Made by a program: the position numbers and the translations under genes
DNA from: Antedon mediterranea
Lineage: Eukaryota; Echinodermata; Crinoidea; Comatulida; Antedonidae
Reading direction: 5' to 3'
Length of the DNA: 64,000 nt
Assembly (NCBI RefSeq): GCF_964355755.1
Contig: NC_092675.1
Location: 30,404,912-30,468,911, forward strand
Notes under the pieces: generated by a model
Told to the model about the DNA's origin: nothing
Database searches by the model: none
What the model saw: the letters and a program-made list of their open reading frames with translations, nothing else
Shown: in pieces, positions 11,003 to 57,633 of the stretch
How positions within the stretch are numbered: the stretch's first letter is position 1
How the letters are laid out: each line of letters starts with the position of its first letter

Positions 11003-11122
11003 GTTTGTCGATTGCTTACACTTTGATTTTGAATTTCTTGGTTTGCAGTATATTGTAGGCTATTTTTGCATCTTTAAATGTTTGACATGGTTACAGTAGA
11101 GCTAAGTACCGAACTTATACGT

Positions 11123-25306: not shown

Positions 25307-25394
25307 GCTTGTCAATTGCTTACACTTCTAAATAAATAACTCCTTCGTTTCATAGACCAGATTTCATGGATTCAGTAGGCCTATTAGTAGAGCT

Positions 25395-31768: not shown

Positions 31769-34700
31769 ATGAGCCAAATGTCAATATTCAGGGATATTCG
31801 TGTGAACATTTCCATCCTAACTTTAATCGTGTTTGTTACGGTAAGATCAGGTAAGCAACTCGAGTAGTTATGTAATGGTTGTCAAATGTTGGCAAAGAAT
31901 ACTTTGTAATGACAATGTCAGTGAAATGTTGAATTGGTAGGAACGTATTAGCTTCAGGCTCTATATAATGCCGAATGCGCTCAATGGTCCTGGACAGTTT
32001 AAAGGAATATAGTTGTTTAGTTCCTTCTGATTTCCATATTTTAATCGATTGGATATTTGTTCTCCTTTCATACGTTTCTATGTACATGTACGCGTTTTAT
32101 GGATTAATTATTTGGTGTAAATTTACCCGTTTGTTTAAATCAGTTATAATAACACCATAGATTTACCCGAATAGTAGGTTAACGGGTATAGGCCCCACTC
32201 TATTATCCACGTAACGCACTTAAAGGAGCATAGTACCAATACTACAATTATTAACATTATTATAAAAATGCAACAAAATAGAGTGACAGTTGAAATTTAT
32301 CATTTTTAAAATATTATATAGAGAGTAGAGTATTTTGACATTTCAATAATTAAGGACTTGACAGAAAGTTTGCATTATCAATCCTAGTGGGACTCTATCT
32401 ATTTTATTAATAAAACAGGCCTATCATTTTTTACCTCCGCCAAGGAGGTATTGTAATCGATCGCGTGTGTTTGTCTGTCTGTCTGTCTGTTTGTTTTTTT
32501 TAGCAGGATTACTCAAAAAGTAATTACAAGATCTTTACCAAAATGAATGTACAGATAGATATGTGGTCAAGGACCACTCCATTAGGACCACGGTCCCAAT
32601 TCTGGACCACTTTTAGTATACTTTTCAGACCTGCTAGTGTTAAAAGATAGGACAGAATTTTTCAAAAGCCGGCGAGCAGTCTTAAAGGCCAGGTGCGGGC
32701 AAAAAATTTATATTGATCATACATTCCAATAATTATCGATCTATAGTTTCCCCTATGTTTCATAATTTTTGGGATTTTATTTGTGTTACAGGAGCTTTTT
32801 AAAAATTAGCACTTTCATATCAGTGGGGGGATGATAGTTCAAATTACACAGTAAAATCTCTATTCTTTTGTACACAAATTTTGAAAATAGAGAGGCATTT
32901 TAAAAAGCTATGAAAAATAAATGGTGTGGTAAAAAATGTTATCAGATGACTAAATATAGGTAATATAATTTGAATTTTACATTTCTGGTATTTTTATTCA
33001 CCCAACTTCAGAATTTTATTTTCATGCTATAGCAAAAATTATCCACCGTATATCCACCATCTTTTTTCACCTTCTAGGGAGTCACCAGACATGTTATTAC
33101 ATTATGTTAACTACCTAACTACTGAAAAAAAGTCTTTCTGTTTTTTTTTTGGCAGAATTTTGCCAAATTTTGTATTTGACCATATTAGGGGAAATTCATG
33201 GTTTTTCATCTTGATTTCTGTTACAAATATTTGATTTATGTACAATTAACAAGATTTTTATATTTAAAATTCATGCTAGTACCTGAGCTTTAAAGTAACA
33301 AGTAAATTGCATTTTCTCGAGAACTACATGTCCAAAAAACTTTATTTTTGTACAAGAGGCAGTTTGTTGTGATTTGTAATTTAAAAACATAATTTGATTA
33401 ATTTACAGGTTTTTTAATACGAGTAGTTTTAAAAAACCTATTTATTTTAAAATTCACCCGTTTGTTTTTGGCTTTGCTGTTCTATTGTTAGTCAACTGAT
33501 ACCATTGTTAGTTGAAAGGGTGGTTACATAACATACTTTCCTTGTTATCACAATTTTTAAATGCCATGGTTCGCAACAACAAAAAACTGGATTTATTACC
33601 ATTTTCGGCGTGTGAAGTGAACACGCAATACAACAATACGCCAACACGATAGCAAATTGTATCATAATAAAGACACGAATAGAATAAAATGAAAGCAAGG
33701 ACAAATAAATATAGCAACAAAAATTAAATAATTGTATCAAATCATCGATCACACTTTTAACTAACCAAGCGCAATTAAACGTTATACAGACATTTCTAGA
33801 ATCATCTCTATCATCGGCTTGCATGGCTTGGCATATACTGTAGTTCAGCATATCTACCACCGAGTAACCTGTATGCAAATTATGCACGAAACAAAAATAC
33901 CACAAACTCGTTCCACAACATGCACCAGGGGCAAAATCACTAATTCCTTATGATTTGGCTTGACTATGGTGATATATGCATATAAATCCGATCACAATTA
34001 TTAATCTATAAATCATGTAGGCCTAATAACCCATCATATATTAATCATTATTCTCTTTTCTATACTTACAAAATAAATTAAGCTGATATGACATTTAACT
34101 TTTTAGATGAAATCCTTGACCTCACAATATGGTGCCCAACTCCAACGGTTGACATTTCTAGTTCTAGCAGTGAAGTATCAACATTTGGAGGTTATGCTGG
34201 CTCTCCGGATATAACGGAGGATATAACACTTGGACGGAAGAGCGACACAGGCACTGGGCTACAAGGAAGAGCTGTAATGTGGAGTGATGGTGGACACACA
34301 CTAGATTCTGATGATAATACAATGTTTCCTCCAGGTTCTGGCGTAGTAACAAGAAAAGACAGCGCACGTAGCGCATTAATTGTTGATATCGATGCTGGAT
34401 CAGGTGCTAAAAAAGTTGGTGCTTTTTTCGCGACTGCTACAAAAGAGTCCATATCGCAAGATATATCTATCATCATATTGCCTGAAAATGGTGAGTTGTA
34501 TTTCTTTGAATATGGAACAAAGTATAGATACTGATTTACATCATTGTAGTACAGCTTTATACCTATATAAAGTGCGTCTTATTGAGAGTCCGTATACAAT
34601 TAAAATAAAATCTAGTTAACCGTTAGGCCTAGTTGAAATTTACATGAAACATTTTTTATTTAAAATAATATTAGGCCTAATTCGTTAATTCATTCATTCA

Positions 34701-37700
34701 ATCGTTTAATCTGTTAATCGTAATCTCTGGTCAATAGAAAGTAACATTATGTATAAATTAACAAAATTAAACAAACTGTATACTGACTAATTACAATAAT
34801 GCTCTACTATAATAATGGATTGATAATGTAACTATATAGTTTTAACTTTTATTATAATATAATTATATTATGGCAACGAATGATGAAATAACATTTTTCT
34901 GCATCCACCCAACTGTTATGTGATAGTTTGTTTAAAATTGTAGCCAGTGGTTTCCTGACCATGTAACACAATAGTTATTTCAATGAATATTTAATGAATT
35001 TGTATAGCTGAAGTCACTCCACTCCAACGGTCTATCACTGCCAGTATTGGTGACAACGTGACTTTACAAGTCAATACCACAATAAATACGTCCGATTTAA
35101 AATGGAAATTAAACAACGTTGACATATCAGAAGGCAATGGGAAAAATACATTGACTATTAATAATATCAGAACAAGTGATGCTGGAATATACGAATGTTA
35201 TAAAAATAGAAACGGAAAACATGCAATGATGAGATTGATTGTTAGAGGTAAGTTACACTAGGCCTATTTGTGGTGTGTTTGTAATTAAAGGATTTGATTC
35301 AGTTAAAGACTAAACTGTATAAAATGCAATTTCTTTGGAGGGTCCCCATCCGTTCTCGTTCTGTCGCGGTCCCCTACCTAGGTGACCAAACAAAGGAGCA
35401 GGATACACATTTGTCTTGCCACAGACGACTAGGTACTCAGAGACAACAACCAAGACAGAGGCACCCCACAGATAATGCTGGCCAGGAAAAAGTATACTAT
35501 ACAATTCTAAGTCTAGAGCGTAGAGAGTTAAGGAATATTGATCACAAGTTAATACTTTAAAACATGATTAAACAGTCTCTATAGCTTTAAACTAAAACCA
35601 ATAGACGGTGACTTATATAACTAATACAACAATGTAATTTAATTGTAAAACGATAATAGGGGCCTACGCAAATATCTTAGAATACTAATTAACAACTAAA
35701 TACTATTTGGAATCAGCGTTTGTCTCAAGATAACAGAACATGATTCTATAATAATTAATACATAATACAATTAATAACATTTAACTAAGGTTGCCCTACA
35801 AGAAAACATGGAAACAATTGTGATGAAAATTGTCCAGTTTGCTACAATGGAGGAATGTGTGACCACGTGACTGGATTATGTGTATGTCCACCAGGATTTG
35901 AAGGTGTTGATTGCTCACAAGGTAACGTTAAGAATTTTTCTCACTTAACTTTCAATTTTAAATTGCTTTCCTTTTATATATGTTTTCATGAAGTTGGCAA
36001 AGACTGTAATACTCATCTGACTCTTCCTCACACAATATTGAAATGATGTGTCTTTTCTGTTGGTATCATAATTATGTGTATCCATTATATGCACTGATAA
36101 ATTTGTAAACATAAATATGATTAAACTAAATTTGACACATTCATTCTATTATAGATATCTGAAAAAAGGGATTAAATTGTAAAATACTAGTTAAATTCAA
36201 TTTGAGTTATCACAGATTCCTGTAACTACTTTTAGGATGTGGAAACAATCACTGGGGTCGGAAATGCGGCATTTTTTGTACGGGTGGAGGATCATGCTCG
36301 GGAATCTTATTGTGTCCTCCAGATCCTGTTGGATGCTCTTGCAATGCAGGCTATCATGGTGATACATGTGATCAAGGTGAGTATATGTTGAAATTCAAAT
36401 TTTTTATTCTTATTCTTCTTATTTAATAATAACAACTAATAATTATTAACAACACTATAATGTCAGTTGCTTCAATAAAGCTATATTTATTTGTTTATTG
36501 AAACCAGCATGTACAGTTGGCTCTAACTATGGTGCAGGTTGTAATCAGGAATGTCACTGCAGTTCAAACTGTGACAACGCAAGAGGATGTTTAGGTGGAT
36601 CCGGTACATGTAGCAACGGATTTAACGGAGACAAATGTCTTGGTAAGATGTGTATACTTATTTTTATTGCATGAAACAGTTCATGATTAATGTTACTTTG
36701 TGATGTTTAGTAATTTATGCTCATCTATGTTTTATTATTTATTTACGTTAAAAAATTTAAAAAAACAATTCACATTTCATTTTATAATATTATTTATACT
36801 TTTTAAATTTGTTTTATATTCAATTTTACGATAACCACCAATCAAGTGTTAAGCTAGCTACCAGCTTAGTTATTAGATAATACATTGTACTGTATACTTA
36901 TTAATGTATAATGTCTAATGTCGTTATCTTGGTTTTTGTCTTTCAATGATTATTATTGTTTGATTCAATTATTTATTAATTAGTATTTAAGTTCCCGATT
37001 AGAATATAATCTATTATGGTTTATTATAATGGTTCATAATGAAATAATATTTTCGTTAGATCACGTGACATGTCTTGATGGAAAGTTTGGTGAATTTTGT
37101 CAGTATAGTTGTCATTGTGCCACCTCATCATCATGTAATAAAGATACGGGTTACTGCGATAGTGGAAACTGTGAAGATGGATGGGGTGGCAACGACTGCC
37201 AGATAGGTTGGTAAATTTTCCTATTCATCCACTACAGTATAACACACCTGAGTAGATTATTCTCATTATATTGGAGGATTATAGATCACAAAACATTCAA
37301 TAACTACTCCATTGAACTCTTACGTCATCATGTACGTTTCAAGATTCAAGATTCAAGAAATTTTATTTGTCCATAAAAATGGAAATTCACTTTGCTTGGT
37401 AGATTAAAACAACAATATTGCAACAATTTAAAAACGTGCAGTATTATAACAGATTAAAAATACAAGATAAAAAGTTAAAAATACTGTTAGAAATGTAAAA
37501 CTATTAAAAATGGCATTAACGTCTTACATTAGAATTAAAAATATGAATGCTATTTACAACGAAGGATTTTCTAGTTCTACAAAGATTTGCTCTTGGAGGT
37601 CGTAGCCTAATGCCTGATCTATTTAAGTTATAACAGTAATGTAACGGATGAGTGGGGTCTTTCATAATATTGTTTACTTTTTTTAGAATACTCTTTTCAT

Positions 37701-38933: not shown

Positions 38934-38970
<37 letters not shown>

Positions 38971-40936
38971 TCATTATCTTTAAGATTGTTAAGTTTCTCA
39001 CTGGTAGCCAACATGTCTGTTTCATATTGACCATCATCAAATCTGCAGAAAAATTTGTTTAAGGAGTCCACAAACTTCTTGTCACATTCACCTACGTATT
39101 TTTTCGGTTTTTCTTTGTAGTCAGTGAGCATATACATTGCCTTCCAGGCCGAACGCGTGTCTTTATCCTTTAAATGTTTTTCCATTTTAGCTTTATATTT
39201 TTGTTTTGCTTTTAATATACTAGCATCAATCTCCTTCTGAATTCGCTTCGCTTCATCTTTCTTACCGGCTGCATATTCTTTTTTCTTTTTAACTATGAGA
39301 CATTTCGTTTCATGTAAAAACCATGGCTCGCAATTTGGGTACATTTTTGTCTTCCTTTTAGGTATAATGGTATCAGCACAATAGTTTATGTATGAACAAA
39401 CAGCATTCACTTCAACATCGATAGAATTTTCGGATTCTGAGAAAACACCCCAGTCCGTAGATTCAAAACAACCCTTTAGCATATCAATTGCCTCAGTGCT
39501 CCAGATCTGCCTTTCTTTGATTACAGGCTTCTGTCTTTTTAAGATTGGCTTGTAGAGTGGTCTTAGAATCACGATGTCGTGGTCAGAGTTTTCCAATGGG
39601 GCACATGTTTTAGCATTATAAGCCTTTGGGATGTTTGAATAACACAGATCCAGAATTGCATTTCCTCGTGTTGGTTGCTGTACAAATTGTTTAAACGTAG
39701 GGAGAACAGTGTTCAGGTTACATTGGTTAAAATCTCCCAGAATGATTTTTACAGCGTCTGGGGAATGCGATTCAATATTATTGACCTGCTCAGCAATGTG
39801 TTCACACGCGATAGTATAATTTGCACCTGGGTGAATATATACTATAAAAATAAAAATTTGTGGAAATTCGCGCGGTAAGTAGAAAGGTCTGATCCCAACA
39901 GTAAGTACTTCATAGTCGGGTGTACAGGCTTTCGACCAAACCTTCCAGTTGTTACAAAATTGTTGGTTAATATAAAGACAGACTCCACCACCTGTAGTTT
40001 TACCTGAATTTATGGTTCTATCACTTCTCAGGAATGTGAAATTTTCAAGCTCAATGGCTGAGTCAGCGATTTCATCTTTGAGCCATGTCTCCGTAAAACA
40101 TAGTAATGAAGCTTCTCTATATTCATGGAGAAATCGTATATTAGCTCGCAGTTCGTCCATTTTGTTCATCTTTCACATCATGAAATTATTTGTATCATTG
40201 CACTCATAAACATTTGTATAACATTATTTTACGCCATTTCCGGGTATTTCCCTAATCATAAGTATAGTCAACTGTTTGTACAGCAATTTATTTATTCTGG
40301 ACATCATGAAAAGTCAAACATAATAGACCAACATACAAAGTAAAAGTTATCTACCTTACTCCAAAAAGCCATTTCATTCATAGCAGACACGAGCATGCCA
40401 CTGGATCTATACGGTAGGCCTACTTTGGGTAATGCAACAACGCCTGAGTGAAATTATTATTATAACATGTAGGCCTATAGGGGTAGTTTTAAATTTTCAG
40501 CATACATTATTGCAATATACGCGTTCATTTGGAATTTTTTAAAAGGCAATATTTATTCAATACATACTGTAGATAGTATGTATAGTAATATTATGTGTAA
40601 TATTGTTTGCAGCTTTACCAATTCTGTCATCTGCACCAACTATATCGAATATAATGGATAACTCAATAACAGTAAACTGGCCTGCTTGGGATTATAACAA
40701 CGACTACGGAACCGGACCGATTCAGGAGTACGAAGTGCAGTACAGAAGTTCTATTAACTCAGATTTCATATCAGCAGGATCCGTGAATGGAAGCAAACCT
40801 GCGCCAGAATATGTAATAAATAATCTCAGTCCAGGGACCAATTATGAAATCAAAATAAAAGTAGTTAAAACGGCATCATCTACAGAGACCAATATATTTA
40901 CTTACACTCCTACAGCAGTAGCAAGTACAGATGAGG
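31769..40936 (+). CDS. Gene 3 first ectodomain block: signal peptide, Ig, Ig, EGF x4, FN3
   Basis: The signal peptide exon 31769-31850 starts [20 protein letters not shown]. The Ig1 exon 34107-34490 begins [16 protein letters not shown]. Ig2 is 35008-35247, with DAGIYECY and RLIVRG directly before the EGFs, the same junction as in Tie. EGF exons: 35790-35921 ([20 protein letters not shown]), 36236-36376 ([16 protein letters not shown]), 36508-36642 and 37060-37206. FN3 exon 40613-40936 contains [15 protein letters not shown]. Intron 7 (37207-40612) holds a LINE. The block is followed after a 272-bp intron, in phase 1, by a second Ig1. Confidence 0.87.
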
Positions 40937-43900: not shown

Positions 43901-45747
43901 GCGACAAAACCCCCTCTCCCCAAATCCACATTGACATTTTTTCTACACATATTACTTTTCACAGACCATGCGACATGTCCCAATGGACAATTTGGTGAAT
44001 TTTGTCAGTATAGTTGTCATTGTGCGACGTCAGCATCATGTGATAACAATACGGGTTACTGCGATAGTGGAAATTGTGAAGATGGATGGGGTGGCACCGA
44101 TTGTCAGATAGGTTGGTAGTTTATTTTAAATTAATTTCAGAATATATTTCGCTTACATTCGAATTATCTAAGTACATGTCTAAGTTAATAGGCCAAATTA
44201 TGACCGAAATAAATGCCTCGAATTTTCTTTAGTTAGTTTTAAATTATCATTGATAAACTTATTTAATTTTGTATTTTAAAAATATAATATTTCATGTTTG
44301 ACCTTTTTCTAATTACATTACTAATTTTTAAAAAATAATTATTAATTATTAACACCTATAGGGTCTGTTTTTAGCATAAGGAGATTTGAATATCGCAAAC
44401 TCGATGTTTCATTCTTTAACCGTGTTACAACCCATCCACATCAAGGAAATAGATTGTCTTGATTTTATACACGAGTATGTATGTTTTAACCTCCATAGCT
44501 TTACCACAGTTATTCAAGCAAGTTAACATTGCTGACGTCACAGCCACTAATATGACTATCGCTTATGGTTGGATCTTTGGTGAGGATTATGGAACTGGAC
44601 CAGCTTCATCTTATAAAGTTGTATATAAAAGTGAAGAAGAATCAACATTTACAACAATCACAACAACTGATGACGTCTTTACAATTACTGGGTTACCGCC
44701 AAATCGAATAATTGAGGTGAAAGTTCGTGTTTGTAGGAATATCGGCGGACAAGATGTTTGTGGACCAGACAGTAAAGTTGAGACAGAAACAACTATATGT
44801 TCAAGTGAGAACACTCTGTTGGTTTATAAAAAAAACTCTGTATAGTAATAAGATATCAACATAGGAAAGTACCGATATCCATTGATATGTCATTGTATTA
44901 AAATCCGTAGTAAAAATCCCTCTTTTTCCTTCTTACTTTCTTTCTTCGTTCATTGTATTACAGTAGTTAAAATTGTTTTAAGGAGATAAATAATGAGTAA
45001 CTAGAATAATTATGTTGATTGTAGTGTCGTTATTTATGTAGTTCACACCCCAATAAAAGAAACTGCATTTCTTCATCATTCAGGTCCATTGGTATCTCCA
45101 CGTATTGCAGTTACGGCAGATAGTTGTTCTTCAATAACCATTACATGGCAGGTAGGTGTTTTTCAAATTACTCTTAATAATTAATTTTAGACAATCATAA
45201 AATGTCTTAATTAGCATGATTAATTTACAGTTCCTATCAAAGCTTTAGGCCTATTATAATTTTTTTTTTTTATTTGCAGCAAATAGATAATGATCAAGAG
45301 AAAATACAGTGCAACAGTTTTCATTACGGTGTATATTGTGAGTCAGATTCAGAATCTAGAACTATCACTGTCAGTGATGTTACATCAACTACTACAATTG
45401 ATGGGTTAACAGCGTGCACGTGGTATAGCTGTAAAGTACGAATAGAGAACAACGCTGGATTCAATGGCTCATGGAGTAACACTGAAACAGTTGAAACTCA
45501 CGCGAATGGTAAACTTATTTAAACAAATTTGGTCATTTGGTGTGTTTCCTCATTTCATACTATTTATTAATAACAATAATACCAAATAGCTTTTGTTATT
45601 GCTCAAATTACTTGGTAAGACTTTTGCATCATCTGCAGTCTTGTGCCAAAAATGATGAGCCCGTTTACGTTTACGACAGCAATGACACCAAGCCATTTGA
45701 ATGTCCTGATAACTATAGTATTCTTCCCTCTTTCTTCCCTCTTTCCT

Positions 45748-45779
<32 letters not shown>

Positions 45780-48700
45780 TCCTCTTTCTTTCTTTCTTGG
45801 CATTGTGTAAACAATATATATATTATATAGGTATAAATCCTTAGGATTTAATAAACGGGAAAGTTTTTGTAAAAAAAATATTTGTTGTTTGCGACGATCA
45901 TGAATAATGCGGAACAAAAATTATTCTTATGGATTTGTTCGTACATTTATTTTTATGTATTTCTTAGCTCCGTCCAAAGTTGGTGGGATTACTGATACTT
46001 CAGGGTCAGATTATATTTATTTATCTTGGAATGAAGTGGAAAATGGAAACTGTCCTGTTATGTATAACGTAACTTATCAACTAATACAATTTGATATGTG
46101 TGATAACACTAGTAATGAAGTCATCAATGAAGGTCCAGTTCAAACTGCTTCATACACCTTATCAAATCTGAGTGCGTATTCCCGATATCGAATCCAAGTT
46201 ACTGCGGTGTCTAATGATGTAGCTGGAGCAGTATCAGATGAGCATACAGTACAAACAGAAGAGAGTGGTAGGCAAACAAATATTAGTTTATTAAATAAAT
46301 CATTTTGTTTGACAAATCCAGTAAAGAAATTACTCACGTTCTTTAGCTTTCGCCATCTTGGCTGATGGCTTGATCACAAGTGATCCGGTCCACTGCTACT
46401 TCCTGAAAATCTGTTGTTATTGTTTCTAGGTGAAGTCATACTTTTTGTAGCAATGATGTGAATACGTGCTCGAGAAATACAGCCCCTTCGTCGCGGTTGA
46501 TTGCGTTAGCCCCCCCCCCCCCCTCTTTCTGATTTGGATTGCCTCTCTGAGTCTACGCTTGAATGCTGTCAAGAATTTTGGCCCCCTCCCAATCGATGAT
46601 GTGGTTTTCTTGAGCTGCATGGTCTGTGATGGCGGATTTTTTTTTTTTTCACATCATTGCTACTAAAAAGTATGACGTCACCTAGAAACAATAACAACAT
46701 ATTTCCAGGAAGTAGCCGTGGACCGGATCACTTGTGATCAAGCCATCAGCCAAGATGGCGAAAGCTAAAGAATGTGAGTAATTTCTTTACTGGATTTGTC
46801 AAACAACATGATTTATTTATTATCTACAAGTTCAAAAAAGTTCAAGCTCAAAAAACATTTATTTGTTCAACAATGGCATTATACAGTATAATATATAGAT
46901 GTGTACATAAATGAAAACATTAGTAATAAGCCATCATTTGGGGTCTTCTCTAGAAGAAATCAAGTTTCTTGTCTCGAGAAAGACCCCAGAAACAATACAC
47001 ATACATTTAAACTAATAAAATTTACTACATAAAATAAAAAAAAAAACGATGAAATAAAAATAGATACTTTCAGTGTACTACAATCATAATAATATTAAAA
47101 TTAGTATAAAGAAATAAGATATTTTTTTTAATTTTTACGAAAAGTATTTAGAGATTTAAAATGCTTTAGTTTGTTATCAAGATCATTCCAGATTCGCGGT
47201 CCTGAATGATTGGTGAAGAATTTATATACAACATGGATGAGATACAATAGGCCTACTTATTTAGATCTCTGTTGTAATTTGTAATCTTTGTTCTTATTAA
47301 TCTCAGAAAATAATGTCAGTGTTCATTACACTGTGAGCACTGGTAATTCGTAGTGTGTTTTAATTCTAAAATAATGTTTAAAAAATCCGATCTTGCTTTA
47401 GTTCCAACTGGTGCTCCAACATCTTTAGAAATATCGTCAACTGATTTTGATTATGTGTCATTGTCATGGGATCTGCCAGAATGTGGTCAGAGGAAAGGTG
47501 ATATAAGCTATGACTACAAGTTGTACTATAACGGATCAGAGGCTGTAGAAACAAGAACGTCTTTCACAGAAACTCAAACAATGATTAGAGATCTTGTTCA
47601 ATGTACATCTTATACGTTCGATATAAGTGCACGGACGTCTAAAGGAATCGGACCATCTTCAGTTATTATCGTCACAACTAACCATACGGGTATTTCTAGT
47701 CATTATCTTTGATAATCATTCATGCATGCTTTAAATTGTGTTACACAAAGTTTATGATGGCGTTAGTTAGTAACGATTATATGTTCATTAACGATGATTA
47801 TCTTCTGTATATTACTTAATTCGAGTCATAGTATAGTTTGCTGTTAAGCCAATTCTCAAAAAGTATCATGCAGTATCATCAATCATCATGTAGGCATATA
47901 CGCTGTACAGCATCCCATATGAGATGCAAGTTGAAGAACACACGATACTGCATGCTGTTTATTGTCGGTAGATATGTTACCGGTCGAATATCAACCTTTA
48001 ATCGTGATAGAAAAAATGCAAAACACTTTCATATCTGTAAATGTAGTGTAAACACTATGAACTTTTCTTTCAATGAATTGATCATATTCTATTACTGCAT
48101 TGATTTGTTGGGAGTGGCCAAGACACTGAAACGTCATTCATATCCGACTATGATATCGGCAAGAATGACGATAATCACGTATTGTTCTGGTGGTGTTTTT
48201 TTTCATTCTTAAACCAGTGTAAACAATAGTTAATTATGAGCCTGTTTTTAGTGGTATAGAGAATGAAACTGATTTTTTCAATTTTTAATTCAGTTCCAGA
48301 TCCCGTAGAAGACTACTCGGTGACGTCGACAGATGAGGATATAACTGTTATTTGGGACCGTGTTGAAAATGGAAATTGCTCTGTTGTATATGACGTAATT
48401 TACCGACTCACAAATCGTGATCAATGTCAAGAGTTGGATGAATCTGACTTCATAGACGCCACAAACTTTACCAATAATACATTTTGTAGTTTACATTATT
48501 TGGAGCCTCATTCTACGTATGAGATAGCGATTATACCTTCATCTGCAGAATATACTGGTAACTCTACTGTGATCAATGAAATCACAGCATCAATAGGTAC
48601 GCCAAACCAATGTTCAAATCATTTTATTTTCAGGTTATTTAAAGATGCTTTTTCTAAAACATTAACTCGTTTAGATATTTCACACACATATTCAAATATT

Positions 48701-51700
48701 GTCTAAAACATAGAATTTAATTGATACAATTAGTAATTTGTTTAATTTATGCTCAACGTAATATCCTTTGATACAATTGTATTTGTTTTTTTTTTCCTTA
48801 TCAAAAGCTCCTGATAAAGCGCCTGAGATAATGACAATGGTTGATCAAGAGCCGTATTCTTTAACTATATCGTGGTGGGAGATTCCGTGTGGTAGTCGTA
48901 ATGGTGACATGATATATGAATATTCATTGAAAGATAAGAATAATGTTATTATACAAGAAGCAAGTACAAAGTCTAACACAGTGAATTTAGATGAAGATAT
49001 AAAGCCATGTAATGAATATACTTTTGAAGTTAATGGAAAGAACGAAAATCTAGAAAAAGGACCAAAAACATCTGAACATATTCAAAGTGGCACTGAACGT
49101 AAGTGAATAATCGATCATGTTGTAATTATCTTCTATGTTAATATACTGTATAACACAATTATGTTATACAAATATATTATTTGTTTTAAAAATAGTATAT
49201 CTTTTTAGATAATGGTAGAAAGCCTATTACACACCATACTATTACTTTTCTAGCTCCGGGAGATCCTGAAAATATCAAAGTAACTCCCGGAAAGGATACA
49301 GTTGAAGTTGAATGGGAAGCTCCAACCAGTAATGATTGTACAGTAGATAATTATACAGTGACACTGACGTCATCAGGAGGTGGTAAAATTAGCAAAACCG
49401 TTAGTGGATCAGTAACGAGTACGACGTTTAAGAGTGATGATGGTATCAAGCCAAACACAGAGTATACAGTTGAGGTCAGTTATTATTATAAATGATAAAA
49501 AAGATAATTGGTAATACTATAAAATCTAAAACCTTAACAGTTGTCTCGATGTCCCACATCAGAATTTTCACCAATTTACATTAATTCATATTTGTATACG
49601 CTTTAAGACATTAACAATTGATAATAGACTGATTTCCTCTTCTTGTTTTGTGTTATGTAGGTAGTAGCGAGTAATTCTGCTGGTTCTGGCAATAATTCCC
49701 CAGAAAAAGAAACGATTAAAACCGATCCTAGAGGTACAATTTAATTTTTATATTCAAATGCTTTCATACTCACTACCTTGCATGCAATATACAACAATAA
49801 AGCTCACACAGAACCAAATACTTAAACTTATTACAAGTATGTTTAAACAAATGTGAACTTTAAAGTTACGTTACTTGTAATATTGTTTCATTCTGTTTTT
49901 TGTTTTGTTTTGTATACCGCACGGAAATGGAATTAAATGCGTTTAAATAAGTGAGCTTATAAAAGGTTGTCTTGAACTGGACAATTACAATTGTATACCT
50001 TTACAGAATATTTAGTGACCATATGTTTACTGTAATGTAGTCAATATAAATGTTGTTAACGTAAGATTCATCAATGTGTATATCATTTATTTCAGCTGGA
50101 TTGATTGCTGGACTCACTATTCCATTTGGTATTCTACTCTTTGTGTTGATTGTTTTTCTTGTGGTACTAAAGAAACGGTAAAAATCATCTAAATAATACG
50201 CGTTTCTAGGCTACATATCAGAACACTAGACACACAGTTTAGTCATATGAAACATCATCAAACTTATTATAATAAACATCTTAGATATTTTTCAGGAACT
50301 TACAGTAGTTCTTTTTCTAAATATATATTCAATTAATCAATAAAAAATCTATTAGTAATAATATATTTTTTTAAACATATTATAATAACAATAATATAAG
50401 TACAGAGAATATTTACAATTTAGCCAATAATGATAAAATATAACAATAACTATTATAAATAAATTATATTAAACAAGTAAAGTAATAAGCGAATTACATT
50501 ATATTTGTATATTTGTTATATTTTAACTAGATTCTCAGATGAGAAGTAATACTTCGTCTTTGATATTTTGACCTCTCTGTCTATTTTAGGCAATCTAAAG
50601 ACAATGATCAAGGAGTTGGTGGGATAGAAAATCCGAACCCCAGCCACCCTATGGGTAAGTTAAATTAAGCTAATTAAGTCAACTTAACATTTTGACAACG
50701 ATTTTCACCAAATAGAAATTTCGTTTTGGATATTGTCTGTATCGTTTAGAAAGAAAATTATTACAGGCCAATTGAATTCCAATGAAAATATTCGTACTAA
50801 ATCATTCTTTTATAATAATTTTATACAAATTTCAAATATGCATGATGATAATGATCTCCATGCATTTAAGCAAAAAGAAAGAAAACTGTATAGCAGTACT
50901 ATTATAAAGGTTATGGTACAATAATGTAATAATCAAGGCCATCTACATGGCTGCAGTCGCGTGCGCAAGTTTGAGTTTGTGTCTACGGACCGACCGACCA
51001 ACCGACCGACATAGTGAGCTAAAATGAATACGGTATAACATTTCCGTTTTTGTTGATAATTAATTATTACTTTAGTTGATTGATTCATATTTAGATCACA
51101 TTATACCGGGACATGTTTCGCCAAGACCTACTCCAAAATCAACTTCCTACCAATATGTACGTCTGCGCGACCTTCAGAATTACGTCCGGAAAAGACAAGG
51201 CCATGAAACAGAAACTTTTAAAAAGGAGTTTAGTGTGAGTTTATATATACTTTTTAATTTACAAACAAATACCATAAAAATAGGTAATAACAATCACGAT
51301 CAAGTTTGTTTTCTAACTCATATACCCTATTTATCATTATTGGCTAAGAATACTGAGATTTAACACGTTCTGCCAATTGAACGCACTTAACAACATCTTG
51401 GTACATTGGTCATATTATGTTTGGCGCTTTCCTCGTTGTAGGCCTACTTAATAAAGTGCATATTGAGAATGCCACTGATTATCAGTGTAACCCTAACCCT
51501 AACCCTTCATATTATTAGCGTTTATACGCCGATGGTTAGGGTTGGTACTGATTCGGCAGGTACTGCAACGGCAAAAACATTCAGTTCACTGTACATCAAA
51601 CATAAACCAATCCACAACATAAATGCATTGTATTTTTTATTTAGGACATTGGATGCAGCATGTTACATCCTTGTATCGAGGCTAAGAAATCCATTAACAG

Positions 51701-54700
51701 GATTAAGAATAGATATGCCAACATTTTAACATGTAAGTTCTGGTGATGTTACTACTATGTCAATATATTTATTTATAAAATATATATATATAAATAAAAA
51801 GCTTCATAGTATTTATTTATACCGTTATGGTTGTTGCTATAAGTGGTATATAGTAAAAAATGTGTTTTTAACATTTATAATTATGTTAACATTATTTTCT
51901 AGATGACCACTCACGTGTGGTTCTTAAGGAAACCGATGACGATGAATCTGATTATATTAACGCTTCATATATCAAGGTACAATTTAGAAAACTGCACACT
52001 CTCAACGTACAATAATATACAATTTATAAATGATAAAGACACACAAATATATAACTTATTACTATATTCCAAGCTTTTATCACCTCTAAATATATGTACA
52101 TAGGCCTAAGGAAAATGTGGATTAAAAACGGTCTGTACGCGAAGAAGGTGCTTTTATACTAAATAGTATTGATTTATTTCATATGCATACCGTTAAATGT
52201 ATCATCATTAATAAGCAAAGTTTATGTTATTTCATTTTTATCTTAAAGTTCAATGGCAATTCTAAAGCGTACATTGCATCTCAAGGTATTTAATTATATT
52301 ATTTTTCACCTGTTATACTACTAGGAATGTTTGTATAAAAGATGTTTAGTACTACAATGGTCATACAACTATTACTGTATATTATGTCTAGGTCCAAATG
52401 AAGCAAGTTTAAACGATATTTGGAGAATGGTTTGGAAAGAAAACAGCAGTATTATTATTATGGTTACAAATCTAGTTGAAAAAAATAAGGTGGGAAATTG
52501 AATATTATTTGACATCTTGCATTTTAAAACGACATGAAACGATATAATAATAAGTTAATATTAAAAACATCACTATCAGAATCATCCGCATTATGCTCGG
52601 AATTATAAACGTACATTACATTGTTATCGAATCTTTTTTTCCAATCGGGCACATTATTATTTCCATGGTACAGTTTGAAGACCATAACGGATTACGTATA
52701 CAATCAGAATCGCTTATTATTTTAGCACAATCCAACGATTATATTATTATAGATTAAATGTAAACAATATTGGCCAGATGTTGGTGAAGCAGTAGCGTAT
52801 GGACGTCTTACTGTTACAAATGTTGACGAAAAGATCACTTCATATTTCACTATTAGAAAATTTGAAATTAAAATGGTAAGTTAAGAAAATAATACAATTA
52901 TTATTATGTAAATGGGGTGAAACAGTAATTTTATTTTAATTTTAGTATTTTTTAAAGTGTTATTTATAATTTTAAAAACCTTACAGTAAAGAAAGCACAT
53001 AATTAATTAATTTATATGTTAGATATTTTCACAGGAATACTATACTACATAATATTTCGGATGATTTTGTTTTTGTTTTTTCTATTTATGGTTCAGTAAA
53101 TAAGGTTTTCTTTTTCTTTAATTTAGGAAGGCCATTCAGAAACACGTTCTGTGCTTCAATACCATTTCACTGCATGGCCTGACATGGATGTTCCTGCCTC
53201 CCCAGCACCATTACTTGAGTTTGTCTACCAAATTAAAGAGGTTAAGAGGTCTCTTCCAGCCGACACTGGCCCAGCAATTGTTCATTGCAGGTAAACAAGT
53301 TTTTTCAACGTATTCTGTTTATAGCCTACGTCAAAGATTCTGTATGGTAAATGCATAAAATGGCATAATGTATGATTTATTTACTAGGTAGTGAATAATA
53401 ATAATATTTAAGATACGTTAAACTTTATGAGAAAATAAATTGACGAATCAAAATAGGAAAACCTTACTAAAGATTTTGTTTGAATAGTAGAAAGAAATAC
53501 TACGTATGGCAAAAAAAAGGATGATTCATTGGTTTTTTTAAAGAAGTTTAATTTTGTTTCTAAAAGAATAATAAGAATTTTGATGCTTTTTTTGCAATAA
53601 AAAACCTACTTATATTTATATGTTTATATAAGCAGTATACTGTAATGTGTATTTGTCATTTTTAAGTGCTGGCGTTGGACGGACTGGTACAGTAATAACC
53701 ATTGATGCTATGTTGGACATGGCTGAAGAAAAGGATAAAATCGATGTATACAACTTTGTGAAAGAAATGAGAGAAAACAGATTTAATATGGTACAAACAC
53801 AGGTAATAATTTGACGCATTCGTTATTAGTAAAATTGCCAAGTTTCACATTTAAAAAAAAATTGGAATTACTCATGGTTAGATAAATAACAAGATTTGAC
53901 AGACTTTAAGTTTGAAGTAAGCAACTTAGAACGGTCTAAATAAGATTGCAAAATAAATGATAATGTTAGATTGGACTATCTTTATCTATCACTGTAGTTA
54001 AAGCAATATCATTGGAGTATGTGAAAGTAAAGCAAAGCTTAATGTTACTTTTAGTTAAACTTAGTGTCAACATTATTTAGCCATGGAAGCCCGAACCAAC
54101 ACAAGGTTGTTCTTCTCGGAGTCGTACACTCGTATTACAATCATGAAATACTAAGACGAAATGGAAACCTACAATAATATTAATACAATAATTGCAACAC
54201 ATAAAACAAATTTAAATCGTATTTAAATTGTATTTATTTCTCAGGGGCAATATATGTTTATATACGAGACTCTTCTGCAAAGTCTGTTTTGTGAGTCGAC
54301 TCATATAACGACAGAAGCTTTTACAGCGTCGTTTAGAAAGTTAAAAGAAACCAACAGTCGACACGGAACGAAATTTATACACGAACAGTACAATGTAAGT
54401 GAAGCACACTTTATAAATGTCAATTTAGATAAACGTGAAAGTACATTTAACCTTATTATTCCTTGAGAAATGTCCTCAATTTACGTTTTTCTATTGGTTT
54501 ATACAGGTTCTGATGGCGCTATTGCCACTTCCGTTGTCTGATAAAACAAGAGCAGGAAAAGATCCTGCAAACGTTGACAAAAATAGATATCCAAGTATAA
54601 TACCAAGTAAGGCTTCAAATGTATCGTAAATAGTATCATTAGTATCATCTTCATAAAAATCAACGCATTGTTGTGTTCAAAGATAAGCTAATAATGATTA

Positions 54701-57633
54701 CGATAATGCCAGGTTAAGATTTAAGTATGACAACTGGGGTAATGGTAACAATTAATAATGGTTGGCAGTATGTGGATTGATGATCGTAGTAGGCTTAATG
54801 ACAGATGGCGTTAACTGTGATCGTGAGAATGATGGTGTAGTGTTGACTGGTGGTGATAGTGGTGATAGAGATGATAGGCCTAGTTAGGGAACGTCCGTGA
54901 TATACATTATACTGACCTGTTAATTTGGTTACATTTCAGTCGACAGAGCAAGACCATTCCTAATGACTAAAGATGGAGATCGAAACAATTATATCAATGC
55001 ATCTTTTTGTAAGGTAAGTATAGTGTCCATGATGTCTTCTTCTGCTAAACTGCTGAACTACAATGCGTCACTCGTAGTGTATATTGTCTCATTTAAATAC
55101 CTTTTATATCTAATATATTCTTAAATTAATATCCTTAATATCTAAAGAAATGTTTTAAAGTAGGCCTAAAATTTAATTATTATTATGTAGGGCTATGGAC
55201 AACGAGAAGATAAGTACGTAGTGACGCAAGCACCGATGCCAAACACGGTGTCAGACTTTTGGAGATTGATCTATGATTATAGTTTGTATATCATTGTGAT
55301 GTTGAATGACGAAAATGCCAAGGATGAGGTAATATATATTCATATCCGCCCCCCCCCACCCCCCAACTTAAAGATGCCAAGGATGAGGTAACATATCTTA
55401 TTCATAACTAGAAAAATCAAACTACAACCCAAAAAATGTATGTATAATATTGTAGGTTGTTATGTTAAGCTTGGTTCCCACTAGAACGCAACGCAAGGAC
55501 GTAAGCCGTAACGCAAGCGAATTGACCAATCACAAGGAACGGTTCGAATAATCCATCGCTTGGATCGGTCAATTCGCTTGCGTTGCGGCTTACGTCCTTG
55601 CGTTGCGTTCTAGTGGGAACCAAGCTTTACTAGGATGGACCACCCTGGTCAGTGATAAATGCTTCACCAAAACTGTTTAAATGAAAAGGTTATAATATCC
55701 GTGTATTGTAATCCACACCCGTTGTTTGTATGCTTGTCGGTCACTAACTTACTAATTTAATTTGTAGTCTATTGGTACATACATTCCACTTGAACTTAAT
55801 GTTCAAACAAAAATGGGTCCCTTTCTTGTTGAACTTGCTGCAATTGAAGATTACGGTTGTGCTATCAAACGAACATTGCAGTTATCAAAAGTAAGTAGGC
55901 ATAATTCTTTTATATGTATATTTGAATATGTTATAGCTCCTATATCAGGGGGATTATCACCTATCGGATACAGTGATTAATTTACTATTGATAATCTTTG
56001 GTCACATGGGTTTAAATCAAAATGTTCGTTAAAAATGATTCCTTTATTTTCAGTTCATGATGTAGGATGTTTCATGAGGCATGGCATTCCACAACTTTTG
56101 TTAGTCAAGTTAATGTAATTGCTTACTAGTTGGAGTCTAGCAGACGTAATTGCATACTAGTTAGAGTCTAGCAGACGTAGTTGCATACTGGTTGGAGTCT
56201 ACCAAACAATTGCTAAACTATTAGTGTGAAAACTCATCTGTGTTGGTGTATAAGTAGAAATCAACATTGTTATTGTGTTGTGATCATTAAAAATATATAT
56301 ATTTTTTTTTTCAAGGAGAATGAAAATCCCCGTGAAATACATCAATTTCAATATCGTGATTGGCCAAATGGTTCGGCGAAGCCTGCTTCGGCCGATTCTT
56401 TCTTTCAACTACGATCAGAAGTCGATAAATCTAAACGAGCAACTCAACAGAACATTGTTGCAGTACACTGTCTGTATGTATAACATAACTTTTGATTATA
56501 CATCAACAGTTTGTTTCCAGATTTTTATTATAACGAGTATTAAGTACATTAAATTACCTTGACGATTAAAAATCCTATCGCGAAAAGTACAATAGCTTAT
56601 TGTTCTTTGTTCACCCACAGAGATGGCAGGAGTCGATGTGGATACTTCTGCGCAGTAGACTCGATCATTCAGATGATTAATGAAGAAGCCATCGTTGACG
56701 TCTTTCAAAATGTCAAACGGATTAAAAGTACTTGTCCGTCTTTGATAAAGACTAAGGTAAATAAAAAGAATTGAACTTTTAAATCAAACCAACAAACACC
56801 ATAATAATTTAGTGGTTCAAAGATAATTATTTGAACTGGTAAAATATGATGATGATTAGTATGGTTATTTGTAAAATGACGACTGAGATACGACATTGAT
56901 TGAATGAATGATGATAGTAATTTATACCGGCACCTCTTTTGCCATGCCTTCAAACTATAGACCGGCTAAACTGCGCTTGTCTGTTTCCTCTATCTTCATC
57001 GGATCCACACGCGCGACACACTAAACTATCTTTGGCCGGCCTAGCCTGCGATGGTTAACTTTTGTTCATGGAGCTAACTTGGAGGGTTTAGTAATTTTAG
57101 CGGTTAGTTAAAATATGATGAATGAATATTTCGAAGCGACAAATTACCAAATGCATGCCTTTTTGTTGATGTTTACTTATTCGCAGCGAAACTATTTACT
57201 TGTCCTACTTCAACCAAGTCCATAGGTCCATAACTATATTATCTCTCGACTTCGCCTCGAGATATAGTATAGTCTCCAGTCACCTTGGGCTATAATATTA
57301 TCCCACGACTTTGCCTCTTGATATAGTATAGTCTCCAGTCACCTTGGGCTATATTTTTAACCATGCCCCTCAGCCCAGTAAATATTACTACTGTATTATG
57401 ATAGTATATGCAGTGGCACAGTGTGATGACGTGGTAAAATGATGATACTGATACCTTTGTTTTAGGAGTTGTTATGACATCGAATTATTTAAATTAAGTT
57501 TATTGTTTTATTAAATTTATGAACTGCATAACTGTTACATCTGCATTTTAATTCACAGGAACAATACACATTATGCTACGAGACGGCACAGTGTTATCTG
57601 GATTCATTCGACATCTACGGAAATTTTAAATAA
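31769..57633 (+). CDS. Gene 3: Tie-like receptor phosphatase with duplicated ectodomain and intact D1
   Basis: Exons: 31769-31850, 34107-34490, 35008-35247, 35790-35921, 36236-36376, 36508-36642, 37060-37206, 40613-40936, 41209-41595, 41999-42238, 42344-42475, 42810-42950, 43282-43419, 43965-44111, 44499-44804, 45084-45151, 45280-45508, 45968-46267, 47402-47689, 48294-48596, 48808-49098, 49254-49474, 49661-49733, 50096-50177, 50590-50654, 51095-51234, 51645-51732, 51903-51976, 52249-52285, 52392-52489, 52753-52875, 53127-53290, 53667-53802, 54245-54394, 54507-54606, 54940-55013, 55191-55328, 55768-55890, 56316-56473, 56621-56756, 57559-57633. Total 6810 bases, a multiple of three: 2269 residues and TAA. 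Opposite in orientation to genes 1, 2 and 4. It is the only family member in the window with a complete D1 active site, so it should dephosphorylate phosphotyrosine at the inner membrane face. Ligand and substrate are unknown. Confidence 0.9.
32425..33440 (+). repeat. Dispersed repeat in gene 3 intron 1
   Basis: Starts CCTCCGCCAAGGAGG with a GTCT run (32476-32491), a head I recognise from common marine-invertebrate repeats. The body contains TTTTCAAAAGCCGGCG and AGAACTACATGTCCAAAAAA. Parts recur at 58840-59070 (inverted) and 7915-8005. No coding capacity. Confidence 0.55.
35327..35530 (-). mobile_element. Solo LINE 3' UTR fragment in gene 3 intron 3
   Basis: About 200 bp almost identical to 62635-62826, including TTTCTTTGGAGGGTCCCCAT and AACAACCAAGACAGAGGCAC. 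Since the 62.6-kb copy follows a reverse transcriptase ORF, this is a severely 5'-truncated insertion of the same family. Open frames crossing it are not genes. Confidence 0.7.
37338..40170 (-). mobile_element. Nearly full LINE: endonuclease plus reverse transcriptase, in gene 3 intron 7
   Basis: The minus-strand ORF 40169 to about 38500 encodes an APE-type endonuclease ([44 protein letters not shown]) then the start of a reverse transcriptase ([31 protein letters not shown]). A single frameshift near 38495, in an A run, separates it from the remainder, which runs to 37516 with [16 protein letters not shown] and [10 protein letters not shown]. The 3' end reads TTCTTGAATCTTGAATCTTG. An ATT microsatellite at 38936-38967 encodes poly-Asn. 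Antisense to gene 3, between EGF4 and FN3. Resembles CR1/L2/Rex-type elements; clade not settled. Confidence 0.88.
41209..49733 (+). CDS. Gene 3 second ectodomain block: Ig, Ig, EGF x4, FN3 x7
   Basis: Ig1 41209-41595 ([14 protein letters not shown]), Ig2 41999-42238, EGFs 42344-42475, 42810-42950, 43282-43419 and 43965-44111. Then seven FN3 domains: 44499-44804, 45084-45151 with 45280-45508, 45968-46267, 47402-47689, 48294-48596, 48808-49098, and 49254-49474 with 49661-49733. The third and fifth FN3 share NG-C-x-V-x-Y with a second cysteine; the fourth and sixth share CG-R-G...Y-Y. This is a duplicated two-domain unit absent from genes 1 and 2. The seventh FN3 also has no counterpart there. 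No new signal peptide precedes this block, so it belongs to the same protein. Confidence 0.87.
42591..42637. repeat. AT-rich hairpin
   Basis: TTATTAACTAATTTAAATAT at 42591 is mirrored at 42617-42637 around a 2-4 base loop. In gene 3 intron 11. Confidence 0.7.
45718..45800 (+). repeat. TTCT microsatellite
   Basis: Imperfect then perfect CTTT units, broken once by CCTC, in gene 3 intron 17. Open frames across it are artefacts. Confidence 0.9.
46290..46822. mobile_element. Large inverted-repeat element with Penelope-like remnant
   Basis: Two arms of about 173 bp (46290-46462 and 46648-46822) are near-identical inverted copies, sharing TTTGACAAATCCAGTAAAGA, CGCCATCTTGGCTGATGGCT and CATACTTTTTGTAGCAATGA-like words. 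The 185-bp centre read on the minus strand gives [19 protein letters not shown] and later a SSTYSHH-type end, which resembles the C-terminal endonuclease region of Penelope-like retroelements. It lies 22 bp beyond the donor of exon 18. Confidence 0.65.
46830..47230 (-). mobile_element. LINE 3' fragment in gene 3 intron 18
   Basis: Minus-strand translation near 47225-47130 gives [20 protein letters not shown] and then [11 protein letters not shown] with a stop. GPxxWNxL is the usual C-terminal motif of non-LTR reverse transcriptases. The rest, down to about 46830, is 3' UTR-like. Truncated, between exons 45968-46267 and 47402-47689. Confidence 0.6.
50096..50654 (+). CDS. Gene 3 transmembrane and first cytoplasmic exons
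   Basis: Exon 50096-50177 encodes [20 protein letters not shown] followed by FLVVLKKR, a clear membrane span with basic stop-transfer residues. Exon 50590-50654 encodes the short juxtamembrane linker ([20 protein letters not shown]), with no recognisable motif. The junctions are phase 2 then phase 1, as in genes 1 and 2. Confidence 0.88.
50985..51025 (+). repeat. Second GACC repeat with the same flank
   Basis: CGGACCGACCGACCAACCGACCGACATAGTGAGCT-type sequence, 70 bp before exon 51095-51234. Shares repeat unit and downstream flank with 12030-12056. Confidence 0.6.
51095..54394 (+). CDS. Gene 3 PTP D1, intact active site
   Basis: Exons 51095-51234, 51645-51732, 51903-51976, 52249-52285, 52392-52489, 52753-52875, 53127-53290, 53667-53802 and 54245-54394. 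All hallmark motifs are present: recognition loop [14 protein letters not shown], substrate-core DYINASYI, general-acid loop WPDMDVP, P-loop [11 protein letters not shown] split by the intron between 53290 and 53667, and Q-loop [11 protein letters not shown]. Known chemistry: the Cys attacks phosphotyrosine and the WPD Asp and Q-loop help hydrolysis. WPDMDVP departs from the common WPDHGVP, but the Asp is kept. This is the only predicted active phosphatase domain in the window. Confidence 0.9.
51488..51506 (+). repeat. Short telomere-like repeat
   Basis: Three units of CCCTAA within gene 3 intron 26. Too short to indicate a telomere. Confidence 0.7.
54507..57633 (+). CDS. Gene 3 PTP D2, unusual P-loop
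   Basis: Exons 54507-54606, 54940-55013, 55191-55328, 55768-55890, 56316-56473, 56621-56756 and 57559-57633. NRYPSIIPS and NNYINASF mark the PTP fold. The WPD loop reads DWPNGS, with Asn for Asp. The P-loop across 56473/56621 reads [17 protein letters not shown]: the HC-X5-R spacing is kept, but the X5 residues are LDGRS instead of SAGVG and the usual Ser/Thr after Arg is Cys. The Q-loop position reads KTKEQY. Weak or no activity is likely, with a regulatory role as in other tandem receptor PTPs. Stop codon at 57631-57633. Confidence 0.87.
55465..55630. mobile_element. Foldback MITE, copy 2, near-perfect hairpin
   Basis: About 165 bp in intron 37 of gene 3, starting AAGCTTGGTTCCCACTAGAA and ending in its complement. 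The arms pair almost throughout and leave a short loop around 55540-55562. Same termini as 25764-26074 but shorter and more homogeneous, consistent with a younger copy. Confidence 0.78.
56116..56208 (+). repeat. 31-bp minisatellite, three copies
   Basis: Three consecutive units of TAATTGCATACTAGTTGGAG followed by TCTAGCAGACG, with a few substitutions. In gene 3 intron 38, about 100 bp before exon 56316-56473. Confidence 0.8.
57240..57356 (+). repeat. 59-bp tandem duplication
   Basis: Two copies sharing ATATAGTATAGTCTCCAGTC and ACCTTGGGCTATA, in the last intron of gene 3. Confidence 0.75.

What the first reader, a model, noticed from the sequence alone, without database searches (positions are those of the whole stretch)
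31769..57633. Receptor combining a Tie-like ectodomain with tandem tyrosine phosphatase domains
The order Ig, Ig, EGF array, FN3, with RLIVRGC joining Ig2 to the first EGF and CPPDPVGC in the second EGF, matches Tie1/Tie2 angiopoietin receptors, which are kinases. Here the same outer part is joined through a membrane span to PTP D1 and D2, in at least three genes. It reads as the phosphatase counterpart of a Tie receptor: same sensing module, opposite enzyme. In vertebrates Tie2 is controlled by a separate phosphatase, VE-PTP, so a covalent version would be a notable wiring change. Homology of the N-terminal domain to Tie Ig1 (GAYF/GAFF region) is my reading and weaker than for Ig2-EGF.
Basis: partly seen in the sequence, partly recalled or inferred. 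Interest (0 to 1): 0.85.

Follow-up and report, generated by a model that had tools for sequence, protein, structure and literature searches.

The report
Phosphatase receptors with Tie-type outer part
An animal, probably an echinoderm, carries cell-surface receptors whose outer part resembles that of the blood-vessel receptor Tie2 but whose inner part is a tyrosine phosphatase, the enzyme that reverses what Tie2's kinase does; some neighbouring copies seem to have lost the residues needed for the reaction.

Summary
Window 31769-57633 (+) is one hand-spliced 41-exon gene: all introns GT-AG, 2269 aa, open frame. Order: signal peptide, two copies of [N domain, Ig, EGF x4, FN3], six more FN3, one membrane span, PTP D1 ([13 protein letters not shown]), PTP D2 (WPN, HCLDGRSRCG). 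Genes C and D (minus) also carry head and PTP exons; D1 of both lacks HCX5R.

The Tie likeness rests on the EGF array: alone it hits Tie2 at 1.2e-20, next protein 2.6e-6, and EGF2 has [10 protein letters not shown]. The Ig alone is generic. The N domain shows no Tie Ig1 signal, and no Ig3 was found. So "same sensing module" is only partly supported.

The same genome has a Tie-like kinase, short-tail receptors with a related head, and 18 of 57 PTP groups (gene A's included) with a Tie-type match upstream. Two recalled echinoderm microRNAs match exactly.

No report of this architecture appeared in what the open-library searches listed. New variant of a known kind (tandem receptor phosphatase). 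Transcript, ligand and enzyme activity are untested.

The parts
31769..31850 (+). gene A, exon 1: signal peptide (by reading)
   Evidence: ATG, hydrophobic stretch, GT donor, phase 1
34107..34490 (+). gene A module 1, N-terminal domain of about 128 aa, family unknown; not shown to be Tie Ig1
   Evidence: other three window copies 59-64% identical; no Tie Ig1 match
35008..35247 (+). gene A module 1, Ig domain ending in RLIVRG
   Evidence: Pfam Ig_3 6.9e-7, 30.1 bits against cut-off 30; generic Ig when searched alone
35790..37206 (+). gene A module 1, four EGF domains, one exon each (35790-35921, 36236-36376, 36508-36642, 37060-37206); EGF2 has [10 protein letters not shown]
   Evidence: Tie2 1.2e-20, next 2.6e-6; EGF2 pattern; Pfam EGF_2 matches only the first, below its cut-off
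40613..40936 (+). gene A module 1, FN3
   Evidence: Pfam fn3 2.3e-11
41209..44804 (+). gene A module 2: N domain, Ig, EGF x4, FN3
   Evidence: exons; Ig over cut-off, fn3 8.5e-4 below cut-off; EGF2 pattern
45084..49733 (+). gene A, six further FN3 domains
   Evidence: Pfam fn3 1.4e-47, six stretches
50096..50177 (+). gene A, membrane span (by reading)
   Evidence: [26 protein letters not shown]
51645..54394 (+). gene A, PTP D1 with [13 protein letters not shown] and QTQGQ
   Evidence: Pfam Y_phosphatase 1.9e-140 for D1+D2; PTPRA 9.9e-130, PTPRS 1.1e-128
54507..57633 (+). gene A, PTP D2: WPN and HCLDGRSRCG (HCX5R formally kept, loop changed)
14166..25327 (-). gene C: signal peptide, N domain, Ig, EGF x4, four FN3, membrane span, D1 and D2 without HCX5R (limits approximate)
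   Evidence: tblastn with gene A, ORFs, splice reading VYSTDCHKIGT and VFSLDESRSG
1..11059 (-). gene D, cut by the left edge: same layout as C; D1 VYSTDCHKIGT; catalytic part of D2 lies outside the window
60029..61723 (-). gene E, D2 exons (VCSLDESRSG); its D1 and head lie right of the window in L019

Best explanation
Gene A encodes a tandem-domain receptor tyrosine phosphatase whose outer head carries a Tie-type EGF array; it belongs to a multigene family in an echinoderm-like genome. Shown by sequence: the exon structure, the Tie-type EGF array, intact motifs in D1 of gene A, loss of HCX5R in D1 of genes C, D and E and in D2 of C, a separate Tie-like kinase and short-tail receptors in the same genome. 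Inferred: the head binds an extracellular or cell-surface ligand and a long FN3 stalk positions it; D1 of intact members removes phosphate from nearby tyrosines, possibly on Tie-type kinases or on the tyrosine-motif tails of related receptors; members without catalytic residues compete for ligand or partner, or act as scaffolds; the doubled head of gene A raises binding valency.
For: One uninterrupted 41-exon model. Tie2 is the best PDB match of the module 1 piece and of its EGF array alone. In 4 of 4 window copies EGF1-3 scores higher with human Tie2 (301-313) than with the host Tie-like kinase (272-283) or two long EGF arrays of this genome (245-276). The EGF2 pattern C.{1,4}[DN]P.GC.C is in 4 of 4 window copies and 10 of 14 other loci with an EGF2-type exon, three more having SP for DP, and in neither long array. 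PTP 1.9e-140. dN/dS 0.41-0.51. 18 of 57 PTP groups, gene A's own included, have a same-strand Tie-type match within 40 kb upstream. D1 exons of 17 of 17 other fetched loci have WPD and VHC, but that set was picked by Pfam match and only 12 of the 17 belong to groups with a Tie-type match upstream.
Against: No transcript was seen; the model is hand-spliced. N domain without Tie Ig1 signal, Ig alone generic, so a Tie ligand-binding head is not shown. Long EGF arrays are close: against Cys/Gly-fixed shuffles the z-score of array L029 (6.0, 6.1, 6.5, 5.6) beats or equals that of Tie2 (5.5, 9.1, 6.5, 7.1) in 2 of 4 copies, and for gene C L029 (276) just exceeds the host kinase (275). EGF2 of the host kinase matches at 2.8e-6, weaker than the best L029 unit at 6.3e-8. 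Of the window genes A, C and D only A has an intact D1. No ligand or substrate is known.
Confidence: 0.65

Rival explanations
1. The EGF array is an ordinary MEGF/SCARF-like array recruited independently by a receptor phosphatase; the Tie likeness is convergence within one EGF type.
For: Ig alone generic; N domain without Tie Ig1 signal; long EGF arrays of the genome match at 9.6e-17, 43% identity; their shuffle z-scores equal or beat Tie2 in 2 of 4 copies.
Against: EGF array alone: Tie2 1.2e-20 against 2.6e-6. The EGF2 pattern is in 10 of 14 other loci with such an exon and in neither long array. Ig-EGF order and the RLIVR junction match Tie2.
Confidence: 0.18
2. Module 1 (31769-40936) is a separate secreted decoy or a relic, and the receptor proper starts at module 2.
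For: A 3.4 kb intron with a reverse-transcriptase insert separates EGF4 from FN3 in module 1; reading past the donor at 40936 meets a stop at 40951.
Against: I saw no signal-peptide exon by eye in the 272 bases before module 2; phases match; module 1 evolves with dN/dS 0.46-0.51 against the other modules.
Confidence: 0.12
3. The family serves mainly recognition, like paired immune receptors; phosphatase activity matters only in some members.
For: D1 of genes C, D and E lacks HCX5R; short-tail receptors with tyrosine motifs carry a related head; copies are clustered.
Against: 17 of 17 other D1 loci read have VHC and WPD, though picked by Pfam match; gene A is intact.
Confidence: 0.3

Closest known systems
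Tie2/TEK and Tie1 angiopoietin receptors
   Same: Ig followed directly by Tie-type EGFs, RLIVR junction, CxPDPxGCxC in EGF2, later FN3
   Different: phosphatase not kinase; N domain not recognisable as Ig1; four EGFs; no Ig3; eight FN3; doubled head in gene A
Tie-like kinase of the same genome (C6:4274285-4288170, minus)
   Same: Ig, Ig, EGFs with the EGF2 pattern, FN3; one exon per EGF (by reading)
   Different: kinase; three EGFs; Ig-like sequence between EGF and FN3; its Ig2-EGF3 hits Tie2 at 5.7e-37
Tandem receptor phosphatases PTPRA, PTPRS, LAR
   Same: single membrane span, D1 plus D2
   Different: no EGF array known to me in the human ones; the review searched has 0 occurrences of EGF
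VE-PTP (PTPRB)
   Same: receptor phosphatase, acts on Tie2 in vertebrates (passage)
   Different: FN3-only outside, single PTP domain
Sea-urchin-specific receptor phosphatases PTPRLec and PTPRscav (Byrum et al. 2006, recalled; paper not held)
   Same: echinoderm receptor phosphatases with unusual outer parts, proposed immune role (recalled)
   Different: not compared here; names suggest lectin and scavenger domains

Membership tests
Tie receptor family | Tie Ig1 domain (Pfam PF10430) | tested here: not met
   no match for the N domain; human Tie2 control 1.7e-46, host Tie-like kinase only 0.054; hhalign E 0.07-0.35
Tie receptor family | Ig2 of Tie type | tested here: inconclusive
   an Ig domain, but alone it matches contactins best; Tie2 not in the 60 listed
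Tie receptor family | Tie-type EGF array with CxPDPxGCxC in EGF2 | tested here: met
   Tie2 1.2e-20, next 2.6e-6; pattern; four EGFs instead of three
Tie receptor family | Ig3 between EGF array and FN3 | tested here: not met
   in module 2 the EGF4 exon and the FN3 exon are 387 bases apart with no exon between; no Ig exon was seen in the longer intron of module 1 (ORFs)
Tie receptor family | cytoplasmic tyrosine kinase domain | tested here: not met
   two PTP domains instead
Tie receptor family | binding of angiopoietin | not testable with these tools
   needs a binding assay
Tandem receptor tyrosine phosphatases | one membrane span and two PTP domains | tested here: met
Tandem receptor tyrosine phosphatases | D1 with WPD and HCX5R | tested here: met
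   met in gene A; not met in C, D and E; WVD and HCSDGVGR in two genes right of the window
R3 receptor phosphatases (VE-PTP type) | single PTP domain and FN3-only outside | tested here: not met
   two PTP domains, Ig and EGF present

The most novel reading that the evidence does not exclude
In one animal a Tie-type head has been joined to four kinds of inner part: kinase, intact phosphatase, catalytically empty phosphatase, and a short tail with tyrosine motifs. Together they would form a repertoire of receptors with opposing outputs around shared or related ligands, like paired activating and inhibitory immune receptors but built from enzyme and dead-enzyme pairs.
Probability: 0.3. Interest if true: 0.78.

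Novelty: new variant of a known kind. Interest (0 to 1): 0.55.

Why it matters
If the transcripts are real, a Tie-type EGF head sits on the enzyme that opposes Tie's kinase, in an animal that also keeps a Tie-like kinase. It becomes testable whether the two forms read the same ligand and oppose each other, and whether a Tie-type head had roles outside vessels. Neighbouring intact and catalytically empty phosphatases with similar heads are a natural set for asking what receptor pseudophosphatases do.

Tried and rejected
Tie Ig1 homology of the N domain was tried by Pfam, a profile search of PDB (one match, an endoglucanase at 0.3), hhalign and AlphaFold (pLDDT 31 from four sequences). None supports it; the negatives are weak, since even the host Tie-like kinase barely matches the Ig1 model. 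What remains is a shared GA(F/Y)F motif and a divergent copy at C6:19.62 Mb with GAFFC. The second structure job was not used: by its stated rule the tool takes the window's own sequences and loci from three other tools, so I could not deepen the alignment.

VE-PTP kinship was rejected on domain count and on scores (PTPRB 2e-63 on one domain). A motif scan of loci L001-L013 found no kinase or PTP motif, so the inner parts of the Tie-type loci at C3:27.6, C4:1.8, C5:1.74, C6:1.0, C6:19.6, C6:26.08 and C8:15.8 remain unknown. A COX1 search to place the animal was empty; two recalled microRNAs matched once each, reversed controls none. Crinoid is only my guess from 11 large contigs.

Literature searches for this architecture: 3 of 3 listed; 15 of 168; 8 of 8; 10 of 150; 12 of 22; 2 of 2; 8 of 26; I judged by titles and abstract starts, and looked at passages of four papers. 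sought a crinoid genome note.

The count 18 of 57 used the 150 listed of 153 PTP matches and a hand-typed part of the 127 head matches (the C2 array rows and many single-EGF rows of the C6:30.4 cluster left out). It is a lower bound in one way (genes C, D and E of the window are missing from the PTP list) and shows neighbourhood, not one transcript. Only 1 of 5 PTP groups at C6:26.29-26.39 has a head match upstream.

One search shows 10 of 14 loci, and D2 of gene D is not visible. I lowered the main confidence from 0.68 to 0.65 and raised the convergence rival from 0.15 to 0.18 for these facts and the shuffle z-scores.

Full report
What is there. The window is G000:C6:30404912-30468911 of a 354 Mb genome in 18 contigs, 30-35% G+C. 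Splicing 41 exons by hand between 31769 and 57633 gives one open frame of 2269 aa, every intron GT-AG. In order: signal peptide; module 1 (N domain, Ig, four EGF, FN3); module 2 in the same order; six more FN3; a membrane span; PTP D1; PTP D2. Pfam supports Ig (just over the cut-off), FN3 (over the cut-off in module 1 and the stalk, below it in module 2) and two Y_phosphatase stretches at 1.9e-140; of the EGFs it sees one per module, below the cut-off.

Other genes. tblastn with gene A and ORF lists show gene C (about 25.3k to 14.2k, minus) and gene D (about 11.0k past the left edge, minus), each with one head, four FN3 and a membrane span, and D2 exons of gene E at about 61.7-60.0k, minus. 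Where D1 of gene A reads [12 protein letters not shown] across a splice junction, genes C and D read VYSTDCHKIGT. D2 of C reads VFSLDESRSG; the catalytic part of D2 of gene D lies outside the window. Gene E reads VY then STDCQRTGT in D1 (in L019) and VCSLDESRSG in D2, where a CX5R spacing survives one place off. So D1 lacks HCX5R in three of the four PTP genes that touch the window. D2 of gene A formally keeps HCX5R (HCLDGRSRCG) but has WPN for WPD. Two genes right of the window have HCSDGVGRTG and WVD in D1; WVD is also noted for a sea urchin sequence in a study of R3 phosphatases (PMC5336234, passages). None of these readings measures activity.

Is the outer part Tie-like? The module 1 piece (528 residues) hits Tie2 at 4.3e-32, the next protein, contactin-1, at 2.3e-8. 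Split up, the EGF array of module 1 alone hits Tie2 at 1.2e-20, next WIF1 2.6e-6. The Ig alone finds contactins and other Ig proteins, and Tie2 is not in the 60 listed of 2311. The N domain gives no Tie signal; human Tie2 Ig1 scores 1.7e-46 on its Pfam model but the host Tie-like kinase only 0.054, so the negative is weak. The likeness is carried by the EGF array and its junction to the Ig.

A harder test of the EGF array. EGF1-3 of the four window copies score 301-313 with human Tie2, 272-283 with the host Tie-like kinase and 245-276 with two long EGF arrays that the genome search also found. Shuffles with Cys and Gly fixed average 149-204. As z-scores the picture is less clear: Tie2 5.5, 9.1, 6.5, 7.1; host kinase 8.4, 7.9, 7.8, 6.5; array L029 6.0, 6.1, 6.5, 5.6; array L030 4.7, 4.6, 5.7, 5.9. 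For gene C, array L029 (276) just exceeds the host kinase (275). The sharper mark is EGF2. The pattern C.{1,4}[DN]P.GC.C, written after seeing the family, is in 4 of 4 window copies and 10 of 14 other loci with an EGF2-type exon; three of the remaining four have SP for DP and one lacks the first Cys; neither long array has it. Against this, EGF2 of the host kinase aligns only at 2.8e-6, weaker than the best L029 unit at 6.3e-8.

The rest of the genome. A search with the module 1 head gave 127 matches (105 of 542 candidates scored), among them clusters at C3:13.14-13.23, C5:7.66-8.06, C5:12.0-12.1, C5:25.2-25.3 and C6:26.08-26.37. The 150 listed PTP matches form 57 groups, 18 of which, gene A's included, have a same-strand head match within 40 kb upstream. 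In 17 D1 loci of C5 and C6:26.3, picked because Pfam matched them, 17 show WPD and VHC; 12 of them belong to the 18 groups; the next exon with the arginine (GAGRTG or GAGRSG) was seen in 7 of the 17. A Tie-like kinase lies at C6:4274285-4288170, minus: two Ig, three EGF, Ig-like sequence, FN3, membrane span, HRDLAARN (by reading); its Ig2-EGF3 aligns with Tie2 at 5.7e-37. Two more kinases with Tie-like exons lie at C6:15.10 and C6:27.48, their outer parts unresolved. At C3:13.16, EGF and FN3 exons on one strand are followed by a membrane span and a tail of about 120 aa with IFYLNV, YGNV, YTSL, YDEI and KPPVPKKP. A related tail at C3:13.24 lies in two frames and lacks the middle part. The link of head and tail there is by order; it was not spliced through.

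Which animal. Two microRNAs that I recall from sea urchin, miR-2008 and miR-2013, each match once exactly, the reversed controls not at all. From memory both belong to echinoderms and hemichordates. Crinoid is a guess. Sea urchin SpTie1/2 is called an orthologue of Tie1 and Tie2 and is expressed in coelomocytes (title in the reference list of PMC13409769), and that starfish study lists a Tie-2-like kinase and a receptor phosphatase F-like protein in coelomocytes (passages). I did not see that phosphatase's sequence.

How it most likely works. Shown by sequence: intact D1 motifs in gene A, a single span, a Tie-type EGF head, constrained coding. Inferred: binding by the head, local dephosphorylation by D1, a competing or scaffold role for copies without catalytic residues. 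I put the combined reading at 0.65, with the doubt mostly in the mechanism and the ancestry of the head.

Known or new. The PTP half is an ordinary tandem receptor phosphatase, closest among solved structures to PTPRA, PTPRS and LAR. The word EGF does not occur in the main text of the review of receptor phosphatase outer parts that I searched. No report of this architecture showed in what seven text searches listed. The library lacks most subscription papers, among them the sea urchin phosphatase survey that I recall, and no eukaryotic protein database was on hand; annotated echinoderm proteins may already show it. I call it a new variant of a known kind.

Noticed in passing
window 37516-40172, minus: A reverse-transcriptase-bearing insert (RVT_1 2.5e-18 in one ORF, 2.4e-6 in the other, overlapping one) lies in the intron between EGF4 and FN3 of module 1.
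   Followed up: partly
L002 3525-4127 (C3:13.16 Mb); L010 5343-5631: Short-tail receptors: membrane span and about 120-aa tail with tyrosine motifs and a proline-rich end; the L010 copy is in two frames.
   Followed up: partly
L014+L015 (C6:4274285-4288170, minus); L016; L018: A Tie-like kinase with Ig, EGF, FN3 and kinase exons, and two further kinases with Tie-like kinase exons.
   Followed up: partly
L020, L021 (C6:30.484-30.512 Mb, minus): Two neighbouring genes with WVD for WPD and HCSDGVGRTG in D1.
   Followed up: partly
L012 1325-1486 (C6:26.085 Mb): An EGF2 with FCLPDPYGCSC, letter for letter as in human Tie2; no kinase or PTP motif was found in its 10 kb.
   Followed up: no
window about 55467-55627: A fold-back element (inverted repeat) in an intron of D2, seen by eye.
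   Followed up: no
L019 4705-5356: A tandem repeat of about 99 bases, seen as repeated ORFs, within gene E.
   Followed up: no
L028 (C6:19.62 Mb), minus, 3-305: A divergent N domain that keeps a Cys in the GAFF motif (GAFFC), a possible bridge to Tie Ig1.
   Followed up: partly
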